64,000 bases of DNA from Microbacterium paulum (GTDB lineage Bacteria > Actinomycetota > Actinomycetes > Actinomycetales > Microbacteriaceae). Positions 19,054-63,906 of this stretch are shown here, in pieces. The notes beneath the pieces are model-generated. The model had not been told where the DNA came from and ran no database searches. It saw only the letters and a program-made list of their open reading frames with translations. Made by a program: the position numbers and the translations under genes. The DNA is taken from the NCBI RefSeq assembly GCF_015707995.1, contig NZ_JAAGRY010000003.1, positions 1 to 64,000 of the forward strand. Direction: 5' to 3'. Within the stretch, counting starts at the first letter, position 1. Each line of letters begins with the position of its first letter.

Positions 19054-19956
19054 ATGACTTCTCCCCACGATGAGCTCGCGGCGCTGCGGGCCCGCGCCTA
19101 CGGCCCCGCCGCCGACATCGACGGCGATCCGGAGGCGCTCGCCCGGCTGCGTGATCTCGAGATCGCGGCGCGCGAAGGGCAGACAACCACCGACGGGGCA
19201 AGCCGGACGGCCGCAGCCGAGACGAGCCGGACGGATGCCGCGTCCGTCGACGCGGTGACGGAGTCGCTGTTCGGTGTCGCCGGCACGAGCGGCGACGAGC
19301 CGGAAAGCTCTCCGGCGCAGGCCGCGTCCGGCTCCGCGGCGGCGGCTACAAGCCCCGAGGCCGTGCCTGCCCCGCCTCGGCAGCCGCGCCCGATCGCGGC
19401 CCGGTGGGCCGTGGCGTGGGCGGCATCGATTGCCGTGGTCGCCGTCATCGTGGGCGGCCTCGTGTTCGGCCTCGCCCGCATCTCGCCCGTGGTCACCGCC
19501 TCGGGCGCGCAGCAGGTCGCTACTCTCGACGATCCGCTCGAGGCGAGCGATCGGCTGAGGCAAGGGGTGGGGGGCGAGACCATGCGCGCCTTCGCGTTCG
19601 AAGGGCTGACCGTGGTGCGGACCCCGTGGGCGCCGTTCGCTCAGGGCAGCGACGGCGAGTGCCTTCTCGTGTTCTCAGACGAGCAGCTCAGCGCGGACGG
19701 AGCGATCTCGGGGGCCATCTACACGGGATGCCGGGCGGGGAGCTTCCCCGCGACGGCCGAGCTCGTCGTCGGGGACGACTCTCCGCAGCCGTTGCGCGAT
19801 CGATTCGGCGGCGGTACCGCGCTGCAGTTCGTGCTCGACGGCGACGTCGTCGGGGTGTTCGTCGGTTCGCCGACCGCCACGCCGACTCCGACGGTCGGGG
19901 CCGCGGCGCGCGCGCAGCTCCCCGTGACCTCAGTCCCGGGCGACGTCCGCGGGTGA
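19054..19956 (+). CDS. Single-pass anchored protein of unknown function
   Basis: About 300 residues. A charged, Ala/Thr/Ser-rich N-terminal cytoplasmic region opens DELAALRARAYGPAADIDGD. One transmembrane helix follows (WAASIAVVAVIVGGLVFGLA, about residue 125). The extracytoplasmic domain has two cysteines (GECLLVF and YTGCRAG) that could form a disulfide. The start could also be the ATG nine bases upstream. The last 27 bases overlap the end of ligD on the other strand. I recognise no family. Confidence 0.7.
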   Translation: MTSPHDELAALRARAYGPAADIDGDPEALARLRDLEIAAREGQTTTDGASRTAAAETSRTDAASVDAVTESLFGVAGTSGDEPESSPAQAASGSAAAATSPEAVPAPPRQPRPIAARWAVAWAASIAVVAVIVGGLVFGLARISPVVTASGAQQVATLDDPLEASDRLRQGVGGETMRAFAFEGLTVVRTPWAPFAQGSDGECLLVFSDEQLSADGAISGAIYTGCRAGSFPATAELVVGDDSPQPLRDRFGGGTALQFVLDGDVVGVFVGSPTATPTPTVGAAARAQLPVTSVPGDVRG

Positions 19957-22446
19957 CATGTCGGCGCGTACGCCGCGCCAGCGGGCGTGGCGCAACGTGC
20001 CGCCGGGGGTGAACTCGGCGAACTCGACCTCGCCGACGACCTCGGGGCGCAGCCACAGGGCATCCGAGGCATCCGCTGCCGGCACGTCGAGGAACGGGTC
20101 GGCGTCGGTGCGGAGCGGCCGCAGCAGCGCGTCGAGGCGGGCGAGCTCGCGGTCGCTGAACCCCGAGCCGACCCGGCCCACGTAGTGCAGGCCGTCGGCG
20201 GCGGGGATGCCGAGCAGGAGCGAGCCGATCGACCCGGCACGCGCACCACGGCCGGGCCGGATGCCCCCGATGACGACATCGTGCGTGCGGGTGAGTTTGA
20301 CCTTGAGCCAGTCCTCCGACCGTGCGCCGCGCCGATACCTTGACGCCGGGTTCTTCAGCACGACGCCCTCGAGCGACAGCTCGCGCGCGGCGTCGAGGGC
20401 CGCATCGAGGTCGTCGGTCACCGGCGGTAGCACGACTGCCGGTGCGGGGGTTCGCGTGATGCGTTCGAGAAGCGCTCGGCGCTCGCGGAGCGGCCGCGAC
20501 GCGACGTCGTCGTCGCCGAGCCGCAGTACGTCGAAGAGCAGCAAGCGTACGGGGGTGCGGGATGCCTCGCGCTCGATCTCGCGCGGCTTCGTGAGGTGCA
20601 TGCGCGCCTGCAGCCTCGTGAAGTTCGGCCGATCCGACGCGTCGAGTGCCACGATCTCGCCGTCGACGACGGCGGGCTCGTGACCGAGTCCTGCGTCGAT
20701 ACCGGTGAGTTCGGGGTAGCGGGCGGTGATGTCGGTGCCGCTCCGCGCCCGCAGCGTGAGCCGGCTCCCGTCCCACGTGCCGATCGCGCGGATGCCATCC
20801 CATTTGAACTCGACCCACGGCTCGCCCCACCGCACGGCGGCCGCCGCCGCGAGCGCCGGTGTCGAGGCCGTCGCGAGCATCGGCGCGTCGCCCGTGGCGC
20901 CCGCCCCCGCGCTCGGGGAGGTCGGCGCGGTGGTCGCCTTCGTCGCGGCATCCGGTCGGTGGGTCTTCGCCTCGGGCGCGCGCTGCGCGGGTTCCGGCTG
21001 GCGCGACGCATCCGATGCCATCCGGTGCAGCAGCCACTGCGACTTCTCGCCGGCGCCCGAGGTGCGGATGAGGGCAAGTTTCGCGGTGCCGAGCGGCCCG
21101 CCCGGTCGGCCGGTCAGGGTGACGATGACCTCGTCGTCGCGCCACTTCTCGGTGTCGTACACCCCGGCATCCCACACCGTCATCCTGCCCGCGCCGTACT
21201 GGCCCGCGGGAATGGTGCCGGCGAAGTCGAGGTACTCGAGCGGATGCGGCTCGGTCATGACCGCGAGGTGGTTGCGGTCGGGGGAGTCCGGCACCCCGCG
21301 CGGCACCGCCCAACTCACGAGCACCCCGTCCCGCTCGAGCCGCAGGTCGTAATGCAGCCGCCGCGCATGGTGCTCCTGAATCACGAACCGCCACGTTTCG
21401 TCCGGGCCGCCATGTTCTGGCGGGCCGGAGCGTAGCGGCTCGGACGAAACATAGCGGCTCGGGGAGGTGAGGGGAGCGGGGGGAGTGGAGGGAGTGGGGA
21501 AGGGCTCGGGGGTCGCGCCGCGCGTGCGCTTGGCGAGGTACGAGGTGAGCGCGTGCGAGGCATCCGGTTCGACGGGGGCGAGCGGGTCGCCGTCGGCGGC
21601 GACGCGCGCGAGTACCTCGTCGAAGCGCAGCTGGCGCAGCTCGGGCGCATCGAGTTCGGCCCAGGTGCGAGGCGCGGCGACCGTCGGCTCCGCACGCCCG
21701 CGGAGCGAATAGGGGGCGATGGTGGTCTTCGCGGCGTTGTTCTGACTCCAGTCGACGAACACCCTGCCCGCGCGCACCGCTTTCGTCATAGCGCTGACGA
21801 CGAGGTCGGGGTGATCGGCCTCGAGAGCGCGCGCCAGCTCGCGCGCGAACGCCGAGATCTCCTCCGACGTGCGCGTGCCGTCGAGGCCCGCATAGAGATG
21901 GATGCCTTTCGACCCGCTCGTCACGGGCAGGGGCTGCATGCCCACGCCGTGCAAGATCTCGCGCGCCCACCGGGCGACCTCGGCGCATTCGGCCAGCCCC
22001 GTGCCGGGACCGGGGTCGAGATCGAGCACGAGCCGATCGGGCTTTCCTCGACCGCCCTCCGTACCGGCGGGCGGTTCGAACCGCCACTGCGGGGTGTGCA
22101 GTTCGAGGCTCGCGACCTGGGCGAGATACACCAGCCCCGCCACGTCGTCGACGACGGGATAGTCCTTCGCGCCGCCGGAGTGGTCGATCGGGTGGCGCCC
22201 GAGCCAGTCGGGGGCGCCCGCCTCGAGATCCTTCGCGAAGAAGGGCGGATGCCCCGTGCCTTCGGGCCACCGCAGCCGGGTCACGGGACGACCGCGCAGG
22301 TGCGGCAGCAGGGCGGGCGCGATCCGCGAGTAGTAGTCGATCACCTCGCCCTTGGTGGTGCCGGTGGCGGGGTACAGCACCTTGTCGAGGTTCGTCAGGC
22401 GCAGGCGCCGGCCGTCGATCTCGACGAGCTGACCGCGCGTGGGCAT
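19930..22446 (-). CDS. ligD: Multifunctional ATP-dependent DNA ligase LigD (POL-PE-LIG)
   Basis: About 838 residues in the mycobacterial domain order. The primase-polymerase domain (about 1-300) has NLDKVLYPATGTTKGEVIDY and LVLDLDPGPGTG. A linker follows (about 305-345). The phosphoesterase domain (about 345-470) has VIQEHHARRLHYDLRLERDG. The ligase domain has the nucleotidyl-lysine motif VEFKWDGIRAI (Lys about 548) and DSWLK-like EDWLKVKLTR. It fills and seals double-strand breaks with Ku, whose gene starts 96 bp away in the opposite direction. The ATG at 22446 is chosen because TACCCT lies six bases before it. The linker contains a REP-like repeat in frame. Confidence 0.95.
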   Translation of the reverse strand: MPTRGQLVEIDGRRLRLTNLDKVLYPATGTTKGEVIDYYSRIAPALLPHLRGRPVTRLRWPEGTGHPPFFAKDLEAGAPDWLGRHPIDHSGGAKDYPVVDDVAGLVYLAQVASLELHTPQWRFEPPAGTEGGRGKPDRLVLDLDPGPGTGLAECAEVARWAREILHGVGMQPLPVTSGSKGIHLYAGLDGTRTSEEISAFARELARALEADHPDLVVSAMTKAVRAGRVFVDWSQNNAAKTTIAPYSLRGRAEPTVAAPRTWAELDAPELRQLRFDEVLARVAADGDPLAPVEPDASHALTSYLAKRTRGATPEPFPTPSTPPAPLTSPSRYVSSEPLRSGPPEHGGPDETWRFVIQEHHARRLHYDLRLERDGVLVSWAVPRGVPDSPDRNHLAVMTEPHPLEYLDFAGTIPAGQYGAGRMTVWDAGVYDTEKWRDDEVIVTLTGRPGGPLGTAKLALIRTSGAGEKSQWLLHRMASDASRQPEPAQRAPEAKTHRPDAATKATTAPTSPSAGAGATGDAPMLATASTPALAAAAAVRWGEPWVEFKWDGIRAIGTWDGSRLTLRARSGTDITARYPELTGIDAGLGHEPAVVDGEIVALDASDRPNFTRLQARMHLTKPREIEREASRTPVRLLLFDVLRLGDDDVASRPLRERRALLERITRTPAPAVVLPPVTDDLDAALDAARELSLEGVVLKNPASRYRRGARSEDWLKVKLTRTHDVVIGGIRPGRGARAGSIGSLLLGIPAADGLHYVGRVGSGFSDRELARLDALLRPLRTDADPFLDVPAADASDALWLRPEVVGEVEFAEFTPGGTLRHARWRGVRADMSPADVARD
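21431..21461. repeat. Half of a REP-like element inside the ligD linker
   Basis: CGTAGCGGCTCG (21431-21442) and CATAGCGGCTCG (21450-21461) are separated by GACGAAA. The same 12-mer with the same 7-base spacer forms one arm of the palindrome after serA (63876-63906). Here it is read in frame on the minus strand and encodes RYVSSEPLRS, near ligD residue 330. Confidence 0.8.
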
Positions 22447-22452
22447 GTCGTC

Positions 22453-22458
22453 AGGGTA
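22453..22458 (-). promoter_or_regulatory. -10 box TACCCT for ligD
   Basis: On the minus strand TACCCT ends six bases before the ATG at 22446. It supports that start over an in-frame ATG 33 bases upstream. Confidence 0.45.
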
Positions 22459-22541
22459 GCGGGCGCGACCCCGCGGCATCCGCGCACCTCCGCTCGCCCC
22501 GGCCCTGGCGCCGACCGGCGCGCGCGGTGTTCACTGGGGTG

Positions 22542-24270: not shown

Positions 24271-24352
24271 TGCGGAAGGTGGGACTTGAACCCACACGCC
24301 CGAAGGCACAGGAACCTAAATCCTGCGTGTCTGCCGATTTCACCACTCCCGC
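24271..24352 (-). tRNA. tRNA-Leu (anticodon UAG)
   Basis: Read on the minus strand, GCGGGAG pairs with CTTCCGC as acceptor stem, with A73 at 24271. The anticodon arm is CAGGA-TTTAGGT-TCCTG, giving UAG. A long variable arm (GTGCCTTCGGGCGT) marks a class II leucine tRNA. The T arm is GTGGG-TTCAAGT-CCCAC. CCA is not encoded. Confidence 0.96.
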
Positions 24353-35700: not shown

Positions 35701-36067
35701 GGGGCTGATCGGTTTCGACAGCGCCTGTGACGCTGCGGGAAGCGGGCCGAGGATGCAGGGTTATCTCGTAAACGATCTCTGCGAACCAATAGTTGCCGAT
35801 GCAAAGCGCAACGACTTCGCCCTCGCTGCCTAAGCGAGTCCGATAGTCCGTCAGACCGTGGGTGATCCCGCCACGGACCCTGGCGTCATCTAGGGATCTT
35901 GCTGTGTGACGGGGTCTCGACGTCACGCGGGACTCTTCTGAGACTGGGCTCGTCGACTTAGGTGTCTGTGACAAAGGTCGGAGCCGAGCAGAACGTCTCC
36001 ACAGACTGCGCCCGGAGAAGACGCAGCATTTCAGCGCTGGACGGGGGTTCGATTCCCCCCAGCTCCA
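35701..36067 (+). ncRNA. ssrA: tmRNA (transfer-messenger RNA)
   Basis: It begins GGGGCTGATCGGTTTCGACA and ends GGGTTCGATTCCCCCCAGCT plus CCA73. Acceptor halves GGGGCTG and CAGCTCC pair. The tag frame starts at GCC 35795 and stops at TAA 35831-35833, encoding ADAKRNDFALAA. The ALAA end is the protease degron. The genome has CGA, not CCA, at 36068-36070, so CCA must be added after processing. An 86-base leader from the TAGACT promoter would be cut by RNase P. Confidence 0.97.
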
Positions 36068-36097
36068 CGACGCCGCTGTCACACGATATGTGGATGC

Positions 36098-37697: not shown

Positions 37698-37770
37698 GCA
37701 CCTCTAGCTCAATCGGCAGAGCAACTGACTCTTAATCAGTGGGTTCTGGGTTCGAGTCCCAGGGGGTGCA
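37698..37770 (+). tRNA. tRNA-Lys (anticodon CUU)
   Basis: The acceptor stem is GCACCTC with GGGGTGC, and A73 is at 37770. The anticodon arm ACTGA-CTCTTAA-TCAGT gives CUU. The T arm is CTGGG-TTCGAGT-CCCAG. CCA is not encoded (CCG follows). Confidence 0.97.
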
Positions 37771-62189: not shown

Positions 62190-63794
62190 GTGTCTCAGCC
62201 CGTCGTCCTCATCGCCGAAGAACTCTCTCCCGCCACGATCGACGCCCTCGGGCCGGATTTCGACATCCGCACCGTCGACGGCGCCGACCGCTCGGCGCTC
62301 CTCGCCGCGATCGGCGATGCCGACGCGATCCTCATCCGCTCGGCGACGAAGGTGGATGCCGAAGCCATCGCCGCGGCATCCAACCTCAAAGTCGTCGCGC
62401 GCGCCGGCGTCGGCCTCGACAACGTCGACATCAAGGCCGCGACCGCCGCGGGCGTCATGGTTGTCAACGCCCCCACCTCGAACATCATCTCGGCCGCCGA
62501 ACTCACGGTCGGCCACATCCTCTCGCTCGCACGGCACATCCCCGCCGCGCACGCGTCACTGGCCGCCGGGGCCTGGAAGCGCAGCTCGTTCACGGGCACC
62601 GAGCTGTTCGAGAAGACGATCGGCATTGTCGGCCTCGGCCGCATCGGAGCGCTCATCGCGGCGCGGCTGCAGGGCTTCGGCGTCACGGTCGTCGCCTACG
62701 ACCCCTACGTCACGCCCGCCCGCGCGCAGCAGCTCGGCGTCACGCTGCTGCCGCTCGATGACCTGCTCGCGCAGAGCGATTTCGTCACGATCCACATGCC
62801 CAAGACGCCCGAGACGACCGGCATGATCGGCGCCGAGCAGTTCCGCATCATGAAGCCGACCGCGTACGTCGTGAACGTCGCGCGCGGCGGCCTGATCGAC
62901 GAGGAGGCGCTCTACACCGCCCTCACGACCGGCGAGATCGCCGGCGCGGGCCTCGACGTGTTCACGTCGGAGCCGCCGAAGGCGGACGGCACCGCGTTCC
63001 CGCTGCTGTCGCTGCCGAACGTCGTCGTCACGCCGCACCTCGGGGCGTCGACCGACGAGGCGCAGGAGAAGGCCGGCATCTCGGTCGCCCGCTCGGTCAA
63101 GCTCGCGCTCGAAGGCGACCTCGTGCCCGACGCGGTCAACGTCGCCGGCGGCGTGATCGACCCGTTCGTGCGCCCCGGCATCGCGCTCGTCGAGCAGCTC
63201 GGCCAGGTGTTCTCGGGGCTCGCCGCGAGCGCGCTGACGAGCCTCGACATCGAGGTGCGCGGAGAGCTCGCCGCCTACGACGTCAGCGTCTACCGGTTGG
63301 CCGCACTCAAAGGCATCCTGTCGAAGATCGTCAGCGAGAACGTCTCGTACGTCAACGCGCCGCTGTTCGCCGAGCAGCGCGGCATCGAGACCCGCCTTAT
63401 CGTCGAGGCCGAGAGCCCGCTGTACCGCAATATCACGATCCTGCGTGGCACCCTCTCGGACGGCTCGGTGCTGACGGTCGCCGGTACCCTCGCGGGCACC
63501 CGCATGGTGCCGAAGATCGTCGCGATCAACGGGTACGAGATCGAGGTGCCGATCGAGCAGCACCACATCGTGATGCGTTACGCCGACCGCCCCGGCATCG
63601 TCGCGATCTACGGTCAGAAGCTCGGCGAGGCCGGCATCAACATCGCGGGGCTCTTCGTCGCGCAGCCGGATGCCTCGGGCCGCGCGCTCTCGGTGCTCAC
63701 GGTCTCTTCGCCGGTGCCCGAGCAGATCCTCGAAGACATGCGCGAGGCCGTGGGCGCCGACCTCTTCCGCCAGATCGAGATCACCGAGTCCTGA
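62190..63794 (+). CDS. serA: D-3-phosphoglycerate dehydrogenase
   Basis: A 534-residue enzyme for the first step of serine synthesis. Order: substrate half (ILIRSATKVDAEAI), NAD-binding VGLGRIGALIAARLQGFGVT, catalytic Arg in NVARGGLIDEEAL, His in VTPHLGASTDEAQEKAG, the allosteric substrate-binding domain of long actinobacterial SerA, and a C-terminal ACT domain (YADRPGIVAIYGQKLGEAGI). The GTG at 62190 matches the family start and has GAAGG upstream; in-frame upstream residues are not family-like. Confidence 0.95.
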   Translation: MSQPVVLIAEELSPATIDALGPDFDIRTVDGADRSALLAAIGDADAILIRSATKVDAEAIAAASNLKVVARAGVGLDNVDIKAATAAGVMVVNAPTSNIISAAELTVGHILSLARHIPAAHASLAAGAWKRSSFTGTELFEKTIGIVGLGRIGALIAARLQGFGVTVVAYDPYVTPARAQQLGVTLLPLDDLLAQSDFVTIHMPKTPETTGMIGAEQFRIMKPTAYVVNVARGGLIDEEALYTALTTGEIAGAGLDVFTSEPPKADGTAFPLLSLPNVVVTPHLGASTDEAQEKAGISVARSVKLALEGDLVPDAVNVAGGVIDPFVRPGIALVEQLGQVFSGLAASALTSLDIEVRGELAAYDVSVYRLAALKGILSKIVSENVSYVNAPLFAEQRGIETRLIVEAESPLYRNITILRGTLSDGSVLTVAGTLAGTRMVPKIVAINGYEIEVPIEQHHIVMRYADRPGIVAIYGQKLGEAGINIAGLFVAQPDASGRALSVLTVSSPVPEQILEDMREAVGADLFRQIEITES

Positions 63795-63828: not shown

Positions 63829-63906
63829 CGAGCCGCTACGAACTGGTCGAGCCGCTACGTTTCGGCCCGCCGGATCGTAGCGGCTCGGCCGAAACGTAGC
63901 GGCTCG
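63829..63906. repeat. REP-like palindrome of four 12-mers after serA
   Basis: CGAGCCGCTACG occurs at 63829-63840 and 63848-63859, and its complement CGTAGCGGCTCG at 63876-63887 and 63895-63906. All four are exact, with seven-base spacers and a common centre at 63867.5. Pyrimidine-rich (left) and purine-rich (right) flanks extend the pairing. It lies between two convergent genes and could end both transcripts. Confidence 0.85.

What the first reader, a model, noticed from the sequence alone, without database searches (positions are those of the whole stretch)
21425..21465. REP-like half element captured in frame as part of the LigD linker
Two 12-mers with a seven-base spacer, matching 31 of 33 bases with the palindrome after serA, lie between the polymerase and phosphoesterase domains of ligD. 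They add RYVSSEPLRS plus flanks to the protein. This is a repeat that is normally intergenic entering a coding region at a tolerant interdomain site. It may change linker length between strains.
Basis: seen in the sequence. Interest (0 to 1): 0.62.

Follow-up and report, generated by a model that had tools for sequence, protein, structure and literature searches.

The report
Four-unit palindromic repeat inside ligD
A 78-base palindromic repeat that normally sits just behind genes has landed in frame in the linker of a DNA-repair enzyme in a few Microbacterium species, and it looks like one member of a widespread repeat family whose recognition letters change between species.

Summary
The repeat in ligD is real but larger than reported. 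It is a complete 78-bp element (21384-21461), not a half: four 10-bp units (CGAGCCGCYA type), two direct and two inverted, at fixed spacing. The match to the serA copy is 28 of 31 bases (30 of 33 with one flanking base each side), not 31 of 33. It encodes residues 340-366, between the polymerase and phosphoesterase domains. G000 has seven copies, six of them outside ligD.

Five Microbacterium genomes carry it in ligD at the same site; a sixth (G281) has what looks like a deletion remnant. The other LigD loci inspected lack it, including G000's closest relative found (M. lacticum), so G000 gained it separately or by transfer.

A search for only the CGAG tags and spacing matches 190 of 366 Microbacterium genomes (reversed control: 10). 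Cores differ between genomes but usually agree within an element. Examined copies mostly lie just behind stop codons. Units stay constant while spacers diverge, suggesting recognition by an unknown sequence-specific factor at gene 3' ends (inferred). The RAYT-type transposase family hits 1 of 366 genomes, so these are not typical REPs. The ligD copy is best read as a tolerated passenger.

The parts
19930..22479 (-). ligD, 849 aa; Pfam: polymerase domain residues 42-299, phosphoesterase 368-458, ligase 533-728, ligase C-terminal 747-840
21384..21461 (.). complete tetrad element in ligD; encodes residues 340 (part) to 366 (part)
   Evidence: residue numbers
21384..21393 (+). unit 1, CGAACCGCCA (its first bases also encode the conserved R-F of LigD)
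21403..21412 (+). unit 2, CGGGCCGCCA
21433..21442 (-). unit 3 (inverted), read on + as TAGCGGCTCG
21452..21461 (-). unit 4 (inverted), read on + as TAGCGGCTCG
21462..21499 (+). purine-rich tract in the G000 linker, absent from the ligD copies of G080 and M. hominis; purine-rich flanks also follow G000's other copies
62190..63794 (+). serA (D-3-phosphoglycerate dehydrogenase), gene before the second window copy
63829..63906 (.). second tetrad in the window, intergenic, behind serA and facing a convergent TetR-type gene

Best explanation
A complete copy of a Microbacterium intergenic repeat sits in frame in ligD, in the linker between the polymerase and phosphoesterase domains. It adds about 27 residues (plus a purine tract in G000) and is tolerated there because this linker varies in length and is probably unstructured (shown: position, frame, species distribution; inferred: tolerance). 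The repeat belongs to a family that I call CGAG-tagged tetrads: four 10-bp units, two direct and two inverted, 19 bp apart within each pair. In the copies examined the family mostly sits within tens of bases behind stop codons. Constant units and spacing with freely changing spacers point to recognition of the units by a sequence-specific factor. The most likely job is a two-way 3'-end element: a transcription terminator or roadblock, or a processing signal between neighbouring genes (inferred, about 45%). How copies spread is unknown. The ligD copy is a passenger, not a functional part of LigD (inferred, about 80%).
For: Seven copies in G000 by BLAST, pattern and model. 48 of 49 examined places in four genomes have the four units; spacing 19 bp within both pairs in 48 of 48, although 15-24 was allowed. 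Twelve pairs of copies at matching places keep 400 of 432 unit bases but 229 of 420 spacer bases; random between-genome pairs 0.89 and 0.49. Context of the 48: 28 tandem, 14 convergent, 3 divergent, 3 inside a gene (all ligD); 26 of 28 tandem copies within 60 bp of the upstream stop. Core-blind pattern: 190 of 366 genus genomes against 10 for the reversed control; 21 of 29 genus loci inspected have agreeing cores, all 21 in convergent or tandem gaps. In ligD the insert is in 5 genomes, with an apparent in-frame deletion form in G281. Low predicted confidence for residues 307-362.
Against: 176 of 366 genus genomes do not match the core-blind pattern. No T run follows the element in either direction, 0 of 45. 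Three copies lie in divergent gaps, one of them upstream of rpoB. No binding protein was found. Units 1 and 4 match each other slightly more than shuffled (p 0.035) and hairpins are very stable, so structure may matter too. Copies were collected with a model of intact copies, which favours constant units. The M. hominis ligD copy has 4 unit mismatches, so that copy is not kept as a site. The structure model is also poor over most of the phosphoesterase domain.
Confidence: 0.6

Rival explanations
1. The family is a non-autonomous mobile repeat (REP- or MITE-like) without host function; units stay constant because a transposase recognises them, and each genome's core marks its own amplified family.
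For: Copies in a genome share a core while genomes differ. Size is in the MITE range. Only part of the copies have counterparts at matching places: of G000's seven, ligD and serA matched in G080, the other five matched none of the fetched places in G080, G081 and G037. Units within a copy resemble each other more than shuffled.
Against: Copies at matching places keep units while spacers are near random, which passive copies would not do. The Y1 (RAYT) family is in 1 of 366 genomes. Elements were not found in viral contigs. Other transposase families and target duplications were not systematically searched.
Confidence: 0.3
2. The element acts only as an RNA hairpin (terminator or mRNA 3' stabiliser); no sequence-specific factor is needed.
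For: Predicted RNA folds have z -5.1 to -12.8 in 11 of 12 sequences folded. 3'-end location. In several other genomes the inner arm is nearly perfectly palindromic.
Against: A hairpin alone does not need the same core in every copy of a genome. Facing spacers do not co-vary within genomes (p 0.99 and 0.78), and units 2 and 3 do not (p 0.45). No T run.
Confidence: 0.2
3. The insert is kept because it improves LigD, for example by a longer linker.
For: It has persisted in a clade of several species and stays in frame in all five carriers.
Against: G281 appears to have lost most of it; linker sequence and length vary freely in other LigD proteins; non-unit residues of the insert change between carriers.
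Confidence: 0.1
4. History: G000 received the insert by local transfer of a ligD segment from the clade of M. hominis and G080, rather than by a second insertion at the same site.
For: Near the linker G000 sides with that clade at 32 of 49 informative sites, against 77 of 215 elsewhere (Fisher p 2e-4; bins chosen after seeing the data). GTG ATT codons beside the insert are shared with G080, G262, G196 and G281.
Against: The tree of the 303-column tract is unresolved, no starred branch. The G000 insert has spacers and a purine tract like G000's own intergenic copies. G000 groups with G037 in the LigD protein tree (97/95), 77/95 in the DNA tree of the rest of the gene.
Confidence: 0.45

Closest known systems
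REP elements, GTAG and CGTC superfamilies (PMC3733652, passages read)
   Same: Short palindromic repeats, tagged by a tetranucleotide, mainly intergenic, sometimes in frame inside genes, DNA-repair genes included; CGTC REPs also lack a dedicated transposase
   Different: Tag CGAG, four units in 78-79 bp at fixed spacing instead of a single short stem-loop; core changes between species; the passages searched name no actinobacteria; Y1 family nearly absent
Rickettsia palindromic elements, RPE (seen in passages of PMC3733652)
   Same: In-frame insertion into genes for functional proteins
   Different: Other bacteria; of the 48 CGAGCCGCYA copies only the ligD ones are coding; sequences were not compared
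MITEs (size and TIR range from a passage of PMC3733652)
   Same: Size class, inverted symmetry, no coding capacity
   Different: No target duplication recognised by eye; no parent IS searched for; units kept at old positions
Intrinsic transcription terminators (recalled)
   Same: Strong hairpin just behind stop codons, often between convergent genes
   Different: No T run; same sequence core in many copies of a genome

Membership tests
REP (GTAG/CGTC) | GTAG or CGTC tetranucleotide at one end | tested here: not met
   Units begin CGAG; definition from passages of PMC3733652
REP (GTAG/CGTC) | single stem-loop of 20-40 bp (possibly dimers) | tested here: not met
   78-79 bp, four units at fixed spacing in 48 of 48 copies, two of them 10 bp shorter at the centre
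REP with RAYT transposase | Y1-type transposase in the genome (GTAG class only) | tested here: not met
   PF01797: none in G000, 1 of 366 genus genomes
REP / RPE | mostly extragenic with occasional in-frame coding copies | tested here: met
   45 of 48 intergenic, 3 inside ligD; insert in frame in five genomes
MITE | terminal inverted repeats with target-site duplication | tested here: inconclusive
   Inverted symmetry present; filled and empty ligD sites compared by eye show no clear duplication
Intrinsic terminator | GC-rich hairpin followed by a T run | tested here: not met
   Hairpin yes; at least 4 T in the first 8 bases in 0 of 45 copies in either direction
CGAG-tagged tetrad (defined here) | CGAG at the start of four units, 19 bp within each pair, agreeing cores, behind a stop codon | tested here: inconclusive
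   The serA copy meets all. The ligD copy meets the spacing and has units with 2 mismatches in all (CGAA and CGGG in units 1 and 2), so it fails the exact tag and lies inside a gene

The most novel reading that the evidence does not exclude
Microbacterium genomes carry an undescribed class of 3'-end elements, CGAG-tagged tetrads, whose recognition core switches between species and sometimes within one genome while tag and spacing stay fixed. This implies a fast-evolving sequence-specific binding system at gene ends that does not depend on RAYT. The ligD inserts are its rare coding captures.
Probability: 0.5. Interest if true: 0.75.

Novelty: new variant of a known kind. Interest (0 to 1): 0.55.

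Why it matters
In-frame capture of a palindromic repeat by a repair protein has precedents. What is less expected is the family behind it: repeats with constant tag and spacing but species-specific cores, kept at old positions behind genes, in a genus with almost no RAYT. If a factor reads them, the natural series of cores offers a test of how a binding protein and its sites change specificity together, and of how these high-GC bacteria separate neighbouring genes. The ligD site adds an example of an interdomain linker that takes up DNA repeats.

Tried and rejected
Half element: rejected, all four units are present. RAYT-type REP: rejected on tag and transposase. Phage-borne repeat: the exact CGAGCCGCYA tetrad is in 0 viral contigs. 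The core-blind pattern hits 16 contigs, none with inverted pairs of agreeing cores; two are plain tandem repeats, and one of these, L387, reaches my agreement score of 4.0, so that score alone is not proof. Known RNA family: Rfam at gathering scores gives only a tmRNA and two tRNAs in the window. Covariation of a long hairpin as the sole explanation: not supported, with weak exceptions told in the report. A cognate gene beside the elements: no family recurred at unrelated places among the neighbours clustered, and the 18 neighbours scanned with Pfam are ordinary. One ancestral insertion with many losses: least parsimonious, not excluded. Literature: searches by sequence strings and by topic showed me no description of these elements; the library holds open-licence papers only, long lists were cut, and I saw listings, plus passages of three papers. 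A repeat motif recalled from memory (TTCGACRRGCTCAGGGACC) was not in the window.

Dropped rows: one of 49 places (L261, G037) had no four-unit reading and was left out. Three G081 hits of the model at E 0.002-0.008 were not fetched. Of the G000 model hits weaker than the seven copies (C11, C86, C3:69719, C45) only C11 looks like a tetrad by eye (for C11 and C86; the other two were not read). Some model hits in other genomes are palindromes without the full four-unit layout (by eye). G080/G081 copies L233/L242 match on one side only and were not used as a pair. The LigD regex failed on 14 of 139 loci, 12 Curtobacterium, one Plantibacter and one unnamed Microbacteriaceae; the DNA scan covered them.

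Full report
What is in the sequence. ligD lies on the minus strand at 22479-19930 (849 aa). Pfam places the polymerase domain at residues 42-299 and the phosphoesterase domain at 368-458. In register with its relatives it runs from 21384 to 21461, 78 bp, and encodes residues 340-366.

Copies in the same genome. BLAST, a pattern and a covariance model agree on seven copies in G000 (3.2 Mb, 147 contigs): ligD, behind serA, and on C10, C30, C40, C42 and C52. A weaker model hit, C11:8322 (E 7.7e-6), has by eye the same arrangement with another core, CGARTCACCA. The genus is Microbacterium, judged by the named LigD relatives. G037 is taken to be M. lacticum DSM 20427 and G081 M. hominis NBRC 15708, because contig lengths and linker DNA agree.

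Anatomy. I read 49 places in G000, G080, G081 and G037 by script; 48 have four units GAGCCGCYA (usually preceded by C), two direct and two inverted. The script allowed 15-24 bp within a pair and found 19 bp in 48 of 48 for both pairs. The central distance is 29 or 30 bp in 46 and 19 bp in 2. Over all 192 units, eight of ten unit positions carry 1.6-2.0 bits and the other two 1.3 and 0.9; spacer positions carry 0.1-1.3. Twelve pairs of copies at matching places (eleven with both neighbours or ligD itself matching, one with one neighbour) keep 400 of 432 unit bases and 229 of 420 spacer bases; random pairs between genomes keep 0.89 and 0.49. So the spacers are close to saturated while the units are not. 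A caveat: the copies were found with a model made from G000 copies, which favours intact units.

Pairing. Predicted RNA hairpins are strong: z -5.1 to -12.8 in 11 of 12 sequences folded (two of these are the two strands of the ligD copy) and -2.8 for the M. hominis ligD copy. Facing spacers do not co-vary within genomes (p 0.99 and 0.78). Units 1 and 4 agree slightly more than shuffled (p 0.035; their variable pyrimidine p 0.046); units 2 and 3 do not (p 0.45 and 0.98). Neighbouring spacers within a copy resemble each other more than shuffled ones (p 0.010 and 0.032), and the start of the central spacer against spacer 3 gives p 0.006. No correction for the number of tests was made. I read this as sequence-specific recognition rather than pairing alone, without excluding a role for the hairpin.

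Place in the genome. With a codon-usage gene finder written here, the 48 copies lie 28 in tandem, 14 in convergent and 3 in divergent gaps, and 3 inside a gene, all ligD. Other neighbouring gene pairs in the same loci are 89 tandem, 16 convergent and 22 divergent. Tandem copies lie 7-320 bp after the upstream stop, 26 of 28 within 60 bp. The flank after the element is G-rich in both directions, without a T run. Genes beside the G000 copies are ordinary, among them serA, a photolyase and, across a divergent gap, rpoB.

A family with changing cores. The model search over 149 genus genomes matched 40; by eye many of the matches read had the same layout with other cores, and some lacked the full layout. 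A second, sequence-only model matched 65 of 366. A core-blind pattern that fixes only CGAG or CTCG in the four units matches 190 of 366 genus genomes, up to 21 places in one genome; the reversed pattern matches 10 of 366, 11 places in all (my count of its table). Single matches may be chance. I inspected one locus in each of 29 genomes, the first listed and not a random draw: 21 have a mean core agreement of at least 4 of 6 bases, while random sets of four CGAG cores average 1.83 with a 99th percentile of 3.17. All 21 lie in convergent (12) or tandem (9) gaps; 20 lie within 61 bp of a gene's 3' end (one of them overlaps it by 48 bp) and one at 212 bp. Cores differ between genomes, for example TGCACG, ACCCCC, CCGCCA and CGGGCA. 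Some genomes show two or more cores, such as G029 and G107. In 228 genomes of the family 23 match and the control matches 4. Twenty of the 23 are outside the genus; of 17 outside-genus loci inspected only two, in G542 and G485, have agreeing cores, so most of those matches are chance.

The insert in LigD. Of 139 LigD loci from three searches (some genomes appear more than once), 125 could be read at the phosphoesterase start. Eight loci from five genomes, G000, G080, G262, G196 and G081, have the insert, and a DNA scan of all 139 finds the tetrad in the same eight only. Of the 254 genus genomes with a match only the 30 best were fetched. In a LigD tree without the linker, G081, G281, G080, G262 and G196 form a supported clade. 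G281 lacks the insert, but by eye its linker resembles the insert with an in-frame internal deletion. G000 groups with G037, which lacks it (97/95). The tree needs at least three changes, so G000 had a second insertion or a transfer unless many lineages lost it. Sites near the linker lean to transfer, but the tract tree is unresolved, and the purine tract and spacers of the G000 copy look like its own intergenic copies. I leave this open.

Protein side. Codons ending in A or T are more frequent in the insert than in the rest of ligD: 7 of 27 against 84 of 801 (p 0.02) in G000, 10 of 27 in G080 (p 0.001), 9 of 27 in G262 and in G196 (p 0.01 each), but 4 of 27 in G081 (p 0.29). This fits a sequence acquired at the DNA level. 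The AlphaFold model from 25 sequences gives low confidence to residues 307-362 in LigD numbering, but also to most of the phosphoesterase domain (mean pLDDT 71, pTM 0.41), so it only agrees with a loose linker. A review says that long loops between LigD domains are likely flexible (PMC8656161, passages).

Comparison with what is known. PMC3733652 (passages) describes GTAG- and CGTC-tagged REPs, some lying in coding regions such as uvrA and uvrB, and argues that modular proteins may tolerate them; it also mentions in-frame RPEs of Rickettsia. The ligD event is a new case of that kind. The tetrads differ in tag, number of units, fixed spacing and the near absence of the Y1 family (1 of 366). My searches showed no description of them, which is a limited test.

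Noticed in passing
L126 (G000 C11:8322-8450): A tetrad-like palindrome in the same genome with another core, CGARTCACCA; suggests more than one core family in G000.
   Followed up: partly
L269, about 1751-1820 (ligD of G311): The LigD linker of G311 carries a Pro-rich stretch (PAPVPEPAPVPEPVEG) from a short direct repeat, a different expansion at the same linker.
   Followed up: no
L231 and L232 (G080): Two copies have a central distance of 19 bp instead of 29 or 30, about one helical turn shorter; the copies at matching places in G081 have 30 and 29.
   Followed up: partly
L278 (ligD of G281): Linker looks like the insert with an in-frame internal deletion.
   Followed up: partly
L353 (G041 C15:20980-21342): The only Y1 transposase family hit among 366 genus genomes.
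   Followed up: no
window 35701-36070, 37698-37770, 24271-24352: tmRNA and two tRNA genes by Rfam.
   Followed up: no
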